Below, in pieces: positions 1,143-29,455 of a DNA stretch of 61,268 nucleotides. The stretch is from Balneolaceae bacterium (GTDB lineage: Bacteria > Bacteroidota > Rhodothermia > Balneolales > Balneolaceae): contig JAEPQH010000022.1 of NCBI GenBank assembly GCA_017640605.1, positions 1 through 61,268 of the forward strand, written 5' to 3'. Position numbers and translations under genes: made by a program. Each line of letters opens with the position of its first letter. Within the stretch, counting starts at the first letter, position 1. The notes below the pieces were generated by a model. The model did not search any database, had not been told where the DNA came from, and saw nothing but the letters and a program-made list of their open reading frames with translations.

Positions 1143-2147
1143 TTAAACAACCTTCCCCACCTCAAAAACCTCTTCACCTAGCTCAGCAGCTTTGGCTTTT
1201 ACCGCATCCACCTGATCGGCGGCAACAACGGCTACTAAGCCAATCCCAAGATTGAAGGTAGCTTGCATGTCTTCTTCGGGGACGTTGCCGATTTCCTGAA
1301 TGAGTTTGTACACGGGTGGACGTTCCCAGGCATCCCAGTTTATATCCAAGGCTAAACCTTCGGGTAAAATTCGCTTGGTGTTGCCAACCATCCCACCACC
1401 GGTAATGTGGGAAAATCCATTTACGCCATCCATAACTTTTAGGGCAGAAATGATCGGTAAATAGGAGCGGTGAACTTGCAGTAATTCTTCAGCCACGGTG
1501 CTGCCTAGTTCTTCTACATAATCGTTTACACCGTATTCACTAAACAACACTTTTCGAGCTAGCGAGTAGCCATTGGTGTGTAACCCCGAGCTTTTAAAAC
1601 CGATCAACACATTGCCTTCGGTAATTCCGGTTCCATTAATTACTTGGTCTTCATCTACAATGCCTACAATGGTTCCGGCCAGATCGAATTCTCCTTCGCC
1701 ATAAATATCGGGCATCTCGGCGGTTTCGCCTCCAATCAAAGCTACACCGTTTTCTTTACACGCAGTGGCAAATCCGCGAATCACTTCAACGCCTACATGT
1801 TGCTCCAGTTTTCCGGTAGAAAAGTAATCCAAAAAGAAAAGAGGAGTAGCTCCACACACGGCAATGTCGTTAATGCAATGGTTTACCAAACACTGTCCTA
1901 CGGTATCATATTTTCCGGCTTTAAAGGCTACGATCAACTTAGTGCCCACACCATCCACCGAACTCACAAACACGGGATTTTTAAAAGCACCTAAATCAGG
2001 TTTAAAGAAACCTCCAAATCCGCCAATATTGGACAAAACAGCATCGCTGTGGGTTTCTTTTACCATCCCTTTGATGGAATTCACAAGTTCTTCTCCGGCT
2101 TTAATGTCAACGCCGGCGTCTTTGTAGGTAATCGATTTCTTTGTCAT
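1143..2147 (-). CDS. purM: phosphoribosylformylglycinamidine cyclo-ligase (AIR synthetase)
   Basis: Converts formylglycinamidine ribonucleotide to aminoimidazole ribonucleotide with ATP, the fifth step of cytoplasmic purine synthesis. The 334-residue product has family signatures: a glycine-rich stretch IGGFGGFF, SSVDGVGTK for substrate and Mg binding, and GGETAEMPDIY. The frame is open upstream to 2198, but the start at 2147 is preferred: its ATG overlaps the TGA of the upstream gene (ATGA, 4 bp), and MTKKSITYKDAGVDI is the normal PurM N-terminus. It is probably co-transcribed with the upstream DinB/YfiT gene. Its 3' end is duplicated in decayed form at 773-846. Confidence 0.95.
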   Translation of the reverse strand: MTKKSITYKDAGVDIKAGEELVNSIKGMVKETHSDAVLSNIGGFGGFFKPDLGAFKNPVFVSSVDGVGTKLIVAFKAGKYDTVGQCLVNHCINDIAVCGATPLFFLDYFSTGKLEQHVGVEVIRGFATACKENGVALIGGETAEMPDIYGEGEFDLAGTIVGIVDEDQVINGTGITEGNVLIGFKSSGLHTNGYSLARKVLFSEYGVNDYVEELGSTVAEELLQVHRSYLPIISALKVMDGVNGFSHITGGGMVGNTKRILPEGLALDINWDAWERPPVYKLIQEIGNVPEEDMQATFNLGIGLVAVVAADQVDAVKAKAAELGEEVFEVGKVV

Positions 2148-2662
2148 TGTGGATTGGTAACTAATTTTATATGAGCTAAGTGATGATTGCCATGCCAAAC
2201 ATACATGGCTAATGTGTGGAGTAAATCAGTAGGATAATTTCCTTCGGGATGAACAAAGGTTCTGGCAAAATCAGCATCAGTCATATCGTCTAAAATTGCT
2301 CCCCACTTTTTGTGTATGATCGAAATAAAATCTACTGAATCCTGAATGGGAACTTTTACATAATCAGCCGTTTTCGACCAGGCGAGTTCATCGTAAGGTT
2401 TAATCGTGGGATTATCTTCCGTCAACGCTAACTTAAATCGCATCAATGCATTCATGTGGCTGTCGCCGATATGATGAACCACTTGCTTAACCGTCCAACC
2501 ACCTTCGCGATAAGGTGAGTTTAATTGATCAACTTCTGCGTAGTACAGCTCATTCTGAATTTTTTTAGGAAGTGCTTTTATCTCCTCAATTAATTCAGGA
2601 ACGTTTTGCTGGGTAAAAACTGCTTTGAGATCAAAAGTACCGATTGGGAATTTTCTGTCCAT
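2144..2662 (-). CDS. YfiT/DinB-type putative metal-dependent hydrolase (bacillithiol transferase-like)
   Basis: A 172-residue four-helix-bundle protein of the DinB superfamily. Its layout matches YfiT/BstA: WTVKQVVHHIGDSH near residues 57-70 and HGNHHLAH near the C-terminus supply the three His metal ligands. Family members are thiol transferases or hydrolases that use a divalent metal. Whether this organism makes bacillithiol cannot be seen here, so the substrate is open. The stop overlaps the purM start by 4 bp, which suggests translational coupling. Transcription would start in the oriC-like region upstream. Confidence 0.8.
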   Translation of the reverse strand: MDRKFPIGTFDLKAVFTQQNVPELIEEIKALPKKIQNELYYAEVDQLNSPYREGGWTVKQVVHHIGDSHMNALMRFKLALTEDNPTIKPYDELAWSKTADYVKVPIQDSVDFISIIHKKWGAILDDMTDADFARTFVHPEGNYPTDLLHTLAMYVWHGNHHLAHIKLVTNPQ

Positions 2663-3097
2663 TCATTCAAAAATTTCTTCTCAGAAATATAAGATTCTTC
2701 AAAGAGTGTAAAGGGATGAATTTTTAAATCTTTTCCACACCCTTTCTTACAAACATGATGAGATTTTTAAATTTAGTATATAGTATTAGGTAGTGTGGAT
2801 TTGTGGATAACAAACTTTTCATTTTTTTGAACAAAACTTGACAGCATCTTGTGGATACTATTGTTGAAAAGTGAACGCTTATTTTTAACTACTTACAGAA
2901 ATTTTAAAAATGTTCTCCACATACACACACGCATTGCACATAATCGGCACAGAAATTCTGTTAACATCAAAAGTTATTCTTTTTGGATGTTGATTAGATC
3001 AGAACTTTGTGGAAACTTGTTCAGAACTTTTGGCAGTTTGAATTATCCCAATGTTATTCGACAGCTATCCACAAAGTAATCCACATAAATATCCCCT
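2663..3097. other. candidate replication origin (oriC): DnaA-box cluster in AT-rich gene-free DNA
   Basis: This 435-bp region lies between divergent genes and holds eight TCCACA/TGTGGA cores (2735, 2794, 2802, 2850, 2916, 3009, 3068, 3080). About 0.2 would be expected by chance at even base composition. The box at 2802-2810 (TGTGGATAA) is a perfect DnaA box. Those at 2732, 2850, 2913, 3065 and 3077 differ from TTATCCACA at one position. Very AT-rich stretches at 2755-2790 and 2811-2840 could serve as unwinding elements. The 76-codon frame at 2849-3079 has low-complexity, unconvincing protein sequence. No dnaA gene is visible, and the orientation of the rpsP operon and gyrBA further right would be lagging-strand, which is the main argument against. 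Confidence 0.65.
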
Positions 3098-3538
3098 ATG
3101 AAAATTGTAGTTCAGCGCGTGAAAGAAGCAAGTGTTACCGTGGGTAACGAGATAACCGGTGCCATCGAGCAAGGACTTCTTTTACTGGTGGGCATCCACG
3201 AAGATGATACCGACGATCAATTGAAATGGATGTGTGAAAAGATTCTGAAACTTAGGATTTTTGAAGATGATGAGGGGAAAATGAATCGATCGGTGAGTGA
3301 TGTGGAAGGTGGAATTCTGGTTGTTTCCCAATTCACTTTGTATGGCGATGCTAGAAAGGGAACCCGTCCTAGTTTTATAGCAGCAGCACGACCTGAGAAA
3401 GCAGAACCTATGTATGATCAGATGATCGAGTACTTTCAATCAAACTCATCGTTAAATATACAAGGCGGAAAATTTGGTGCTATGATGGATGTACATCTCG
3501 TAAATGATGGCCCGGTTACACTGATTCTGGAGAAGTAA
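3098..3538 (+). CDS. dtd: D-aminoacyl-tRNA deacylase
   Basis: Removes D-amino acids, and glycine mischarged on tRNA-Ala, in the cytoplasm, preventing their entry into translation. The 146-residue length is normal for bacterial DTD. The two signature motifs are present: SQFTL at residues 77-81 and the NDGPVT stretch at 136-141, whose Gly-Pro pair gives chiral proofreading. The start ATG at 3098 lies directly after the DnaA-box cluster, and the N-terminus MKIVVQRVKEASV is canonical. The next gene begins two bases after its stop, so the two are likely one transcript. Confidence 0.95.
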   Translation: MKIVVQRVKEASVTVGNEITGAIEQGLLLLVGIHEDDTDDQLKWMCEKILKLRIFEDDEGKMNRSVSDVEGGILVVSQFTLYGDARKGTRPSFIAAARPEKAEPMYDQMIEYFQSNSSLNIQGGKFGAMMDVHLVNDGPVTLILEK

Positions 3539-26910: not shown

Positions 26911-28794
26911 ATGTATAACAAAGAGACATACGATGTAATTGTTGTTGGCGCTGGTCATGCCGGTAGCGAAGCCGCAGGTGCTGCTGCACGCTTAGGAGCA
27001 AAAACGTTACTTATAACGATGAATCTTGAAGCCATTGCAAAAATGAGTTGTAATCCTGCAATGGGTGGAGTAGCAAAAGGACAGCTTGTCAGAGAGATTG
27101 ATGCGTTAGGTGGGTTAAGTGGTATTGTAAGCGATGAGTCATCGGTACAATTCCGAATGCTTAATCGTAGTAAAGGCCCTGCAATGTGGAGTCCTCGGTG
27201 CCAAAGTGATCGAATGCTTTATGCACAAAAGATGAGAGAGAAGTTAGAGAGCATACCATTACTAACTTTTCGGCAAGATAATGTAGTCGATTTAATTACG
27301 GAGGACTTTGAAGTAAAAGGAATCGTTACCCAAACAGGGCAAAAGTTTTTCGCAAAATCAGTGGTGCTCACAAGTGGCACGTTTTTAAATGGCTTGATTC
27401 ATATTGGGGAGAGTAACTATGGTGGAGGACGATCAGGTGAACGCGCTTCAGTAGGAATATCAGCTGCATTAGAGAATCTTGGCTTTGAAATTGGCAGGCT
27501 CAAAACCGGAACACCACCACGAGTTGATGGTAGATCTGTTGATTATTCTAAGCTTGAAATACAGTATGGAGATGATGACGCGTCTCCGTTTTCTTTTATG
27601 ACGGAAGGAGAATTACCCAAAGCGAAAGACCAACTTACTTGTTGGATTGGATACACAAACGAGCAAGTTCATGATGTGTTAAGAACCGGTTTCGATAGAA
27701 GCCCCATGTTTAACGGCCGCATAAAATCTATTGGCCCGAGGTACTGTCCAAGTATTGAGGATAAGATTAATAGGTTTGCAGATAAGGATCGTCATCAATT
27801 ATTTCTAGAGCCCGAAGGTTGGAACACCTACGAAATGTATCTTAACGGTTTTTCAACTTCTTTACCAGAGGAAACACAAATTGAAGCTCTCCGAACAATT
27901 CCGGGATTTGAGAATGTAGTAATGATTCGTCCCGGATATGCCATTGAATACGATTACTTTCCACCACATCAGGTAAAAAGAAGCCTTGAGACAAAAAACG
28001 TTGAAGGACTTTTCTTTGCGGGTCAGATTAATGGTACCACCGGATACGAAGAGGCTGCATGTCAAGGTTTGATGGCCGGGATTAATGCCGCGCTAAAAGT
28101 TCAAAACAAAGATCCGTTTGTCCTAAAGCGAAGCGAAGCTTATATCGGAGTACTTATCGACGATCTGATTAATAAAGGCACAGAAGAGCCTTACCGAATG
28201 TTTACCTCAAGAGCAGAGCATCGAATTTTATTGCGCCAAGACAACGCCGATTTAAGGCTCACCGAGCTTGGATATAAAATTGGTTTAGCTACAAAAGAGC
28301 GATACGAGCAATATCTTCAAAAGAAAGAAGAGATAGATCGACTACACACGCTAGTTTCAAAATACACTGTTAGGCCTGAGCAAATGGATCCTATGCTTAA
28401 AAAGCTAGGCACTTCTAAATTGACACAGCCTGTAAAAGCGCACACAGTTTTAATGCGACCGGAGGTAAACCTTCAAGAGATGCTTCTAGCTGATGACATA
28501 TTTAAGTCGAAAGTGGAGGCTATTACGAGTAAAAAATATGTAGTTGAACAGGTTGAGATTCAGGTTAAGTATTCAGGCTATATTCAAAAAGAGTACGAAA
28601 TGGTGGATGAGCTCAGTAAAAAGGAAAACTCGCCTATCCCAGAGAAGATTGATTACGCTAAATTGAAAAGTCTATCCACCGAGGGGATGGTGAAATTATC
28701 TAAAATCAGGCCGGAAACTATTGGGCAAGCTTCAAGAATAAGCGGCGTGTCTGCAAGTGATGTAGCTGTTCTGATGGTATACCTGAAAAATTAG
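26911..28794 (+). CDS. mnmG: tRNA uridine-5-carboxymethylaminomethyl modification enzyme
   Basis: With MnmE, installs cmnm5 at U34 of several tRNAs. The 627-residue flavoprotein has the N-terminal dinucleotide motif VIVVGAGHAGSEAA, the SCNPAMGGVAKGQLVREIDALGG block, GTFLNGLIHIG, and the GIDA C-terminal domain with TSRAEHRILLRQDNAD. Its start ATG 26911 follows the tRNA terminator by about 50 bases. rsmG follows after seven bases that form part of a parS-like site. Confidence 0.97.
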   Translation: MYNKETYDVIVVGAGHAGSEAAGAAARLGAKTLLITMNLEAIAKMSCNPAMGGVAKGQLVREIDALGGLSGIVSDESSVQFRMLNRSKGPAMWSPRCQSDRMLYAQKMREKLESIPLLTFRQDNVVDLITEDFEVKGIVTQTGQKFFAKSVVLTSGTFLNGLIHIGESNYGGGRSGERASVGISAALENLGFEIGRLKTGTPPRVDGRSVDYSKLEIQYGDDDASPFSFMTEGELPKAKDQLTCWIGYTNEQVHDVLRTGFDRSPMFNGRIKSIGPRYCPSIEDKINRFADKDRHQLFLEPEGWNTYEMYLNGFSTSLPEETQIEALRTIPGFENVVMIRPGYAIEYDYFPPHQVKRSLETKNVEGLFFAGQINGTTGYEEAACQGLMAGINAALKVQNKDPFVLKRSEAYIGVLIDDLINKGTEEPYRMFTSRAEHRILLRQDNADLRLTELGYKIGLATKERYEQYLQKKEEIDRLHTLVSKYTVRPEQMDPMLKKLGTSKLTQPVKAHTVLMRPEVNLQEMLLADDIFKSKVEAITSKKYVVEQVEIQVKYSGYIQKEYEMVDELSKKENSPIPEKIDYAKLKSLSTEGMVKLSKIRPETIGQASRISGVSASDVAVLMVYLKN

Positions 28795-28809
28795 GTTTCA
28801 CGTGAAACA
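28794..28809. other. parS-like ParB-binding site at the rsmG start
   Basis: GGTTTCACGTGAAACA matches the bacterial chromosomal parS consensus TGTTTCACGTGAAACA at 15 of 16 positions, and the core GTTTCACGTGAAAC (28795-28808) is a perfect palindrome. It spans the mnmG stop/rsmG start junction, and the GTG in its right half is the rsmG start codon. parS sites often lie near gidA/gidB and the origin. Confidence 0.8.
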
Positions 28810-29455
28810 CTCTATAACAATATCTGACTTAACTCACGAGGCATTTAAACAAGCTCAAGAGAATTATCATGATCAGCGAGGGCAGTATCTAGAATATATA
28901 AGTCAGCTTTTTTGGTGGAATAAAAGAGTAAACCTGATAAGTAGAGATGTTTCACATGAAACAATGGTGAGGCATGTTCAGCATTCCTTGTTGCTTACAA
29001 CCCTAGAGGAAGTTAAAAAAGCAGAATATATTCTTGATACAGGTTCGGGGGGTGGGTTGCCGGCAATTCCTTTAAGCATTCATTTCAGAGATAAGAAAGT
29101 AGTAGCTAATGATATCGTTTCAAAAAAAATGATGGCGATAAAACAAATTGGTAGAAAACTAGGATGTACTAATTTTGATACTATTACTACTTCGATAAAA
29201 AACTATGAACTAAGTACCAATGAGTTGATCGTTAGCAAGTATGCTTTCAAGGTGGGTGAATTAATTGCATATTTAGAGGGGAAAAGCTGGAGACAAATAA
29301 TATTTCTAAAAGGAGAAAATGAAGCGAAAGAGGAAATTGAAGAAGTTTCTATTGCGCTTGATACTGAGATTTTACGGCTTGATCCCACCATATCTGATCC
29401 TTTCTACACAAGAAAAGCTATTGTTAAAGTGAGGAGAAAAGATGAAAAGCTCTGA
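28802..29455 (+). CDS. rsmG: 16S rRNA (guanine(527)-N7)-methyltransferase
   Basis: Methylates G527 in the 530 loop of 16S rRNA. The 217-residue protein is full length, with the helical N-terminus, FWWNKRVNLISR, and the SAM loop ILDTGSGGGLPAIPLSI. The start is GTG 28802, lying inside a parS-like palindrome. A second parS-like sequence is in the coding region and encodes VSHET. It follows mnmG in the classical gidA-gidB order, but parA and parB do not follow; a WYL regulator does, overlapping by 14 bases. Confidence 0.92.
   Translation: MKHSITISDLTHEAFKQAQENYHDQRGQYLEYISQLFWWNKRVNLISRDVSHETMVRHVQHSLLLTTLEEVKKAEYILDTGSGGGLPAIPLSIHFRDKKVVANDIVSKKMMAIKQIGRKLGCTNFDTITTSIKNYELSTNELIVSKYAFKVGELIAYLEGKSWRQIIFLKGENEAKEEIEEVSIALDTEILRLDPTISDPFYTRKAIVKVRRKDEKL
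28948..28963. other. second parS-like site inside rsmG
   Basis: TGTTTCACATGAAACA matches the parS consensus at 15 of 16 positions; the only change is G to A in the centre. It lies 154 bp from the first site, inside rsmG. Two such 16-mers so close together are far beyond chance, which supports a real partition locus. Confidence 0.7.

What the first reader, a model, noticed from the sequence alone, without database searches (positions are those of the whole stretch)
2663..3097. Dense DnaA-box cluster: candidate oriC between yfiT and dtd
Eight TCCACA/TGTGGA cores in about 350 bp, one perfect and five near-perfect DnaA boxes, AT-rich stretches and divergent flanking genes. dnaA is not adjacent, so automatic origin finders that rely on gene context could miss it. 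Against it: the rpsP operon and gyrBA to the right would be on the lagging strand.
Basis: partly seen in the sequence, partly recalled or inferred. Interest (0 to 1): 0.75.

Follow-up and report, generated by a model that had tools for sequence, protein, structure and literature searches.

The report
Chromosome replication origin beside dtd
This 435-bp gap between two genes is very probably where this bacterium starts copying its chromosome; the site is kept next to the same gene across its whole order but lies hundreds of kilobases from dnaA, the gene for the initiator protein beside which such origins are usually looked for.

Summary
In detail: eight TCCACA/TGTGGA cores fall in 352 bp of the yfiT-dtd intergenic region (expected 0.28 per 435 bp; none of 20,000 simulated regions exceeded 4). 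One box is perfect and five have one mismatch. The array is conserved in position and spacing across Balneolales. A profile of its left half finds it in 78 of 84 genomes, and in all 76 where dtd was also found it lies just upstream of dtd in the same orientation. In closed relatives the strand-composition switch falls at this array. In G034 the cumulative AT-skew minimum is at 320.0 kb (array 320.16-320.52 kb) and the GC-skew minimum is broad, 283-320 kb. In G059 skew flips from -0.089 to +0.059 across it. dnaA lies 150-832 kb away and shows no switch. Inside the array two overlapping DnaA boxes sit beside DnaA-trio-like TAG repeats (3'-GAT-5') and an AT-rich stretch, the layout of the bacterial basal unwinding system. 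Initiation was not measured, and DoriC could not be checked for an earlier prediction.

The parts
2663..3097 (.). proposed oriC: intergenic DnaA-box array
   Evidence: 8 cores, 1 exact + 5 one-mismatch boxes; far above chance; conserved through Balneolales upstream of dtd
2731..2739 (+). DnaA box TTTTCCACA facing the AT-rich stretch from the left
   Evidence: the TCCAC core is invariant in the 31-sequence alignment
2740..2780 (.). AT-rich stretch, inferred unwinding element (DUE)
   Evidence: sequence; conserved ATTTATAAATTT-like block; no stable single-strand structure predicted
2781..2789 (+). DnaA-trio-like repeats, TAG-TAT-TAG on the top strand (3'-GAT-TAT-GAT-5')
   Evidence: relatives have TAGTAGTAG at the same place, its last TAG nearly invariant; at least two GAT in 19 of 31 relatives against 0.7% in shuffles
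2794..2810 (-). tandem overlapping DnaA boxes AAATCCACA and TTATCCACA (exact); 12 bp from the exact box to the first trio
2850..2858 (-). DnaA box GTATCCACA
   Evidence: same offset (-248) in many relatives
2913..2921 (+). DnaA box TTCTCCACA
   Evidence: same offset (-185) in relatives
3008..3016 (-). weaker box (core TGTGGA, GTTTCCACA)
   Evidence: TGTGGAAACTTGT block conserved in close relatives
3065..3073 (+). DnaA box CTATCCACA
   Evidence: offset -33
3077..3085 (+). DnaA box TAATCCACA next to the dtd start
   Evidence: offset -21
2147..2662 (-). left flanking gene, YfiT-family bacillithiol transferase (DinB_2)
3098..3538 (+). right flanking gene dtd, D-aminoacyl-tRNA deacylase

Best explanation
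The yfiT-dtd intergenic region is the chromosomal replication origin (oriC) of this Balneolaceae bacterium. DnaA, encoded far away, binds the array of boxes. From the tandem overlapping pair at 2794-2810 it is guided leftwards onto the DnaA-trio repeats (2781-2789) and opens the adjacent AT-rich stretch (2740-2780), where the helicases are loaded and two forks leave in opposite directions. Shown here: the array, its conservation, the composition switch at the homologous site in closed relatives, and the box/trio/AT-rich order. Inferred from B. subtilis and other species: DnaA binding, unwinding and helicase loading.
For: Array far above chance. Fixed offsets across the family (-367, -296, -248, -185, -33, -21 from dtd) in genomes whose Dtd is only about 70-90% identical, while most bases between the boxes drift. 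The profile finds one strong site per genome in 78 of 84 Balneolales; all 76 that also have a dtd match lie immediately upstream of dtd, same orientation (my comparison of the two tables). G034 (closed, 3,747,071 bp): cumulative AT and GC+AT minima at 320.0 kb, GC minimum 283 kb (-11635 against -11533 at 320 kb), skew maximum between 2.18 and 2.34 Mb against an antipode of 2.19 Mb. Third-position skew for +/- genes is -0.030/-0.094 between dnaA and the array, like the left arm (-0.043/-0.087), and +0.115/+0.026 to its right. G059 (closed): -0.089 left, +0.059 right in adjoining 20-kb stretches, third-position skew also switches. In the window itself the cumulative GC and AT minima are at 3096 and 3058, though only 2.7 kb lies to the left. 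Box-trio layout with a 12-bp spacer matches the 10-13 bp peak in PMC8287927.
Against: No direct measurement of initiation. The window's own genome is a draft and its contig ends 2.7 kb left of the array, so its genome-wide skew was not computed. Raw skew around the array in the same-genus genome G001 shows no clean minimum, although third-position skew shifts as expected. The G043 skew is coarse and its third-position skew is dominated by gene strand. A strict run of three or more NAN trios occurs in only 13 of 31 relatives against 20% of shuffles; the signal is in the GAT motif itself. Essential operons rpsP and gyrBA to the right are head-on. Gene strand bias is weak: 58% of coding residues on + to the right of the array, 43% between dnaA and the array.
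Confidence: 0.94

Rival explanations
1. The array is a DnaA-regulated promoter region or DnaA-titration site (datA/DARS-like) and not the origin; the origin is near dnaA.
For: Smaller same-strand box clusters lie upstream of dnaA (C17:33241-33511) and of the B12-dependent ribonucleotide reductase gene (C10:103620-104194) in the same genome, so box clusters alone do not prove an origin. Boxes lie close to both gene starts.
Against: The composition switch is at the array and not at dnaA in G034 and G059. The other clusters have 4 boxes, not 6-8. The paired-box/trio/AT-rich block is found once per genome as a strong match, here.
Confidence: 0.04
2. Two origins or a bipartite one: this array plus the dnaA-upstream cluster act together.
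For: A 4-box cluster precedes dnaA; the Helicobacter pylori origin is described as consisting of two parts (PMC8235120, abstract).
Against: dnaA is 150-832 kb from the array wherever both were found on one contig, far beyond a bipartite origin, and skew does not switch there.
Confidence: 0.01
3. Chance or AT-rich clustering with no function.
For: AT-rich intergenic DNA raises the number of AT-rich motif matches.
Against: Zero of 20,000 simulated regions reach the count; conservation across families of the order.
Confidence: 0.005

Closest known systems
Bacterial oriC with a basal unwinding system (B. subtilis type; Pelliciari et al. 2021, PMC8287927)
   Same: DnaA-box array, tandem boxes next to 3'-GAT-5' trios and an AT-rich stretch; 12-bp spacer in the reported 10-13 bp peak. 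B. subtilis also has two such boxes (#6/#7) next to its trios.
   Different: In B. subtilis oriC adjoins dnaA (own knowledge); here it lies between yfiT and dtd, with dnaA hundreds of kb away in relatives. Function untested.
dnaA-distal oriC of E. coli/Yersinia (gidA-mioC)
   Same: Intergenic array away from dnaA; the Ori-Finder authors note that oriC is not always near dnaA and place the Yersinia oriC between gidA and mioC, as in E. coli (PMC10225481).
   Different: Different neighbours; mnmG/gidA is about 24 kb from the array in this window; no search for Dam, SeqA, IHF or Fis sites was made.
Box arrays in other orders of the same class (e.g. G110, G263, G124, G245, G100)
   Same: Weaker matches to the same profile with many DnaA boxes, also apart from dnaA (about 31, 70 and 230 kb in G100, G124, G245).
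   Different: Not beside dtd or yfiT; neighbours read from sequence include pgi-, moeA- and comEC-like genes. Their skew was not tested.

Membership tests
Bacterial chromosomal oriC | Cluster of DnaA boxes in an intergenic region | tested here: met
Bacterial chromosomal oriC | Coincides with the composition-skew minimum/switch | tested here: met
   Met at the homologous site in closed relatives G034 and G059, bracketed in G043; own genome only locally
Bacterial chromosomal oriC | AT-rich unwinding element next to DnaA boxes | tested here: met
   Conserved AT-rich block 2740-2780 by sequence; melting itself not tested
Bacterial chromosomal oriC | Replication initiates there (depth, 2D gel, autonomous replication) | not testable with these tools
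   needs cells or reads
Basal unwinding system (BUS) | At least three trios 3'-NAN-5' within 16 bp of a DnaA box (PMC8287927 rule) | tested here: met
   In the window: three trios (two GAT), 4 bp from the near box, 12 bp from the exact box. Among relatives 13 of 31 meet the strict run; 19 of 31 have at least two GAT
Basal unwinding system (BUS) | DnaA-dependent unwinding requiring boxes and trios | not testable with these tools
   needs the strand-separation assay
dnaA-adjacent origin | oriC next to dnaA | tested here: not met
   150-832 kb apart in 14 genomes with both on one contig; different contigs in G000

The most novel reading that the evidence does not exclude
Throughout the class to which Balneolales belongs, the origin is uncoupled from dnaA: one box-trio-AT-rich module has been kept while its neighbouring genes changed between orders (dtd in Balneolales; pgi/moeA-like or comEC-like genes elsewhere), so the origin module evolves as a unit independent of its gene setting.
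Probability: 0.4. Interest if true: 0.5.

Novelty: new member of a known kind. Interest (0 to 1): 0.42.

Why it matters
It gives an order of environmental bacteria a well-supported origin with a simple landmark (upstream of dtd) and a profile for finding it in draft genomes. One closed relative (G043) has its coordinates starting at dnaA, about 270 kb from this array, so origin-based analyses that assume dnaA would be shifted. The near-textbook unwinding layout makes a direct DnaA assay easy to design.

Tried and rejected
Origin at dnaA: rejected on skew. Other box clusters in the genome as origin: C17 is the dnaA upstream region and C10 lies upstream of a B12-dependent ribonucleotide reductase gene; neither has a comparable array. 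The nearby gidA/mnmG (26911-28791) as marker of the origin: 24 kb away, no comparable cluster there. Local raw skew in G001 was uninformative. 16S search found rRNA in only three of seven genomes; rrn orientation in G034 agrees with the array but does not discriminate it from dnaA. Literature searches for a described Balneolales origin found none in the held library; DoriC itself was not available. PMC7029141 matched only through the genus name Oricola.

Full report
WHAT WAS CLAIMED AND WHETHER IT IS THERE. All eight are present, over 352 bp, with one exact TTATCCACA and five one-mismatch boxes. The flanking genes are correctly named: a YfiT-family bacillithiol transferase on minus and D-aminoacyl-tRNA deacylase on plus. 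Expected number of cores in 435 bp is 0.28; simulated sequences with the region's own dinucleotides never exceeded four in 20,000 trials.

HOST. The best named database match to the Dtd protein outside the genome is a Balneolaceae MAG, so the window is placed in the Balneolaceae or close to it, and 'the order' below is called Balneolales on that basis. The genome is a draft of 34 contigs, 3.74 Mb; dnaA is on another contig, C17.

CONSERVATION. Upstream of dtd, relatives of the same family carry boxes at the same offsets (-367, -296, -248, -185, -33, -21 and so on), while most sequence between boxes has changed. The pattern persists, with modified spacing, in other families of the order. A sequence-only profile of the left half (31 sequences, 138 positions) was searched in 84 genomes of the order: 78 have a match. 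dtd was found in 78. Comparing the two tables, 76 genomes have both, and in every one the array lies immediately upstream of dtd in the same orientation. Many of these genomes were not in the profile. Of the genomes without an array match, G097 has dtd at the very end of a contig and G035 has only about 200 bp upstream of dtd, so the profiled part is missing from the assembly; G016, G024, G084 and G085 have no dtd match either.

STRAND COMPOSITION. G034, same family, is one contig of 3,747,071 bp. About a third was sampled, continuously from 3.42 Mb through the start to 0.56 Mb. The cumulative AT skew and the GC+AT sum reach their minimum at 320.0 kb; the array is at 320.16-320.52 kb. The cumulative GC skew is nearly flat from 283 kb (minimum) to 320 kb and rises afterwards. 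The maximum lies between 2.18 and 2.34 Mb; the point opposite the array is 2.19 Mb. dnaA, at 3.619 Mb, is 448 kb away. Because gene direction affects skew, third codon positions were compared for genes of each strand separately. The stretch between dnaA and the array behaves like the left arm (-0.030 and -0.094), and the stretch right of the array has the opposite level (+0.115 and +0.026). This separates the array from dnaA as origin. G059, another closed genome of the family, switches from -0.089 to +0.059 between the 20-kb stretches on either side of its array, with the third-position values switching too. G043, of another family, starts its coordinates at dnaA; raw skew there is still negative (-0.069), about zero at the array (260-280 kb) and positive at 600 kb, but its third-position values are dominated by gene strand, so it is supporting and not decisive. 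G001, same genus, shows no clear raw minimum though third-position values shift in the expected direction.

DISTANCE FROM dnaA. In fourteen genomes with both features on one contig the distance is 150 to 832 kb (e.g. 448 kb in G034, 346 kb in G059, 270 kb in G043, 150 kb in G082, 832 kb in G072).

INNER ANATOMY AND MECHANISM. On the minus strand the window reads TTATCCACAAATCCACA, two boxes overlapping by one base (2794-2810). On the top strand to their left come TAG-TAT-TAG (2781-2789), that is 3'-GAT-TAT-GAT-5' read outward from the boxes, and then an AT-rich stretch. The order-wide consensus is AGATTTATAAATTTnnTAnnTAGTAGTAGnnAnTGTGGATATGTGGATAA. This is the order box-spacer-trio described as the basal unwinding system, and the 12 bp from the exact box to the first trio is inside the reported 10-13 bp peak (PMC8287927). 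At least two GAT trios occur in 19 of 31 relatives against 0.7% of shuffled flanks; the looser rule of three NAN trios is met by 13 of 31 against 20% of shuffles and is weak evidence alone. The proposed working is DnaA loading on the array, guidance from the tandem boxes onto the trios, opening to the left, helicase loading. These steps are inferred from other species.

THE COUNTER-ARGUMENT. The rpsP operon and gyrBA are indeed on minus to the right of the array and would be transcribed against the fork. But minus-strand genes in the window show the same positive top-strand third-position skew (+0.083) as plus-strand genes (+0.079), so the arm carries the rightward-replicated signature regardless of those operons.

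RIVALS. Box clusters also lie upstream of dnaA and of a B12-dependent ribonucleotide reductase gene, consistent with ordinary DnaA-controlled promoters. They show that clusters alone are not proof, but neither has the array size, the unwinding block or the skew switch.

WIDER LEADS. The same profile gives weaker matches with many boxes in other orders of the class, apart from dnaA and not beside dtd. Their skew could not be sampled, so the class-wide statement is a lead only.

VERDICT. Whether DoriC already lists a Balneolales prediction is unknown to me.

Noticed in passing
G000:C10:103620-104194 (L033:9620-10194): Four DnaA boxes, all on one strand, upstream of a vitamin B12-dependent ribonucleotide reductase gene; similar clusters are seen in G001 (C2:107583-108158) and G005 (C4:298017-298213), their gene context not checked. 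Likely DnaA control of nucleotide supply.
   Followed up: partly
G000:C17:33241-33511 (L032:10241-10511): Four DnaA boxes in one orientation directly upstream of dnaA, suggesting autoregulation.
   Followed up: partly
G259 (C1:1899622 and C1:3581210) and G346 (C4:81201 and C32:54242): Two strong DnaA-family matches in each of two genomes of the same class but other families; in both, one copy lies about 12-23 kb from the origin-like array.
   Followed up: no
window 26911-29452: mnmG/gidA followed by a probable rsmG/gidB, genes classically close to oriC, about 24 kb from the array.
   Followed up: no
L281, L273, L285, L276; L269, L275: Origin-like arrays in other orders of the class sit near pgi- and moeA-like genes (first four) or comEC-like genes (last two; also L281), names read from sequence only.
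   Followed up: partly
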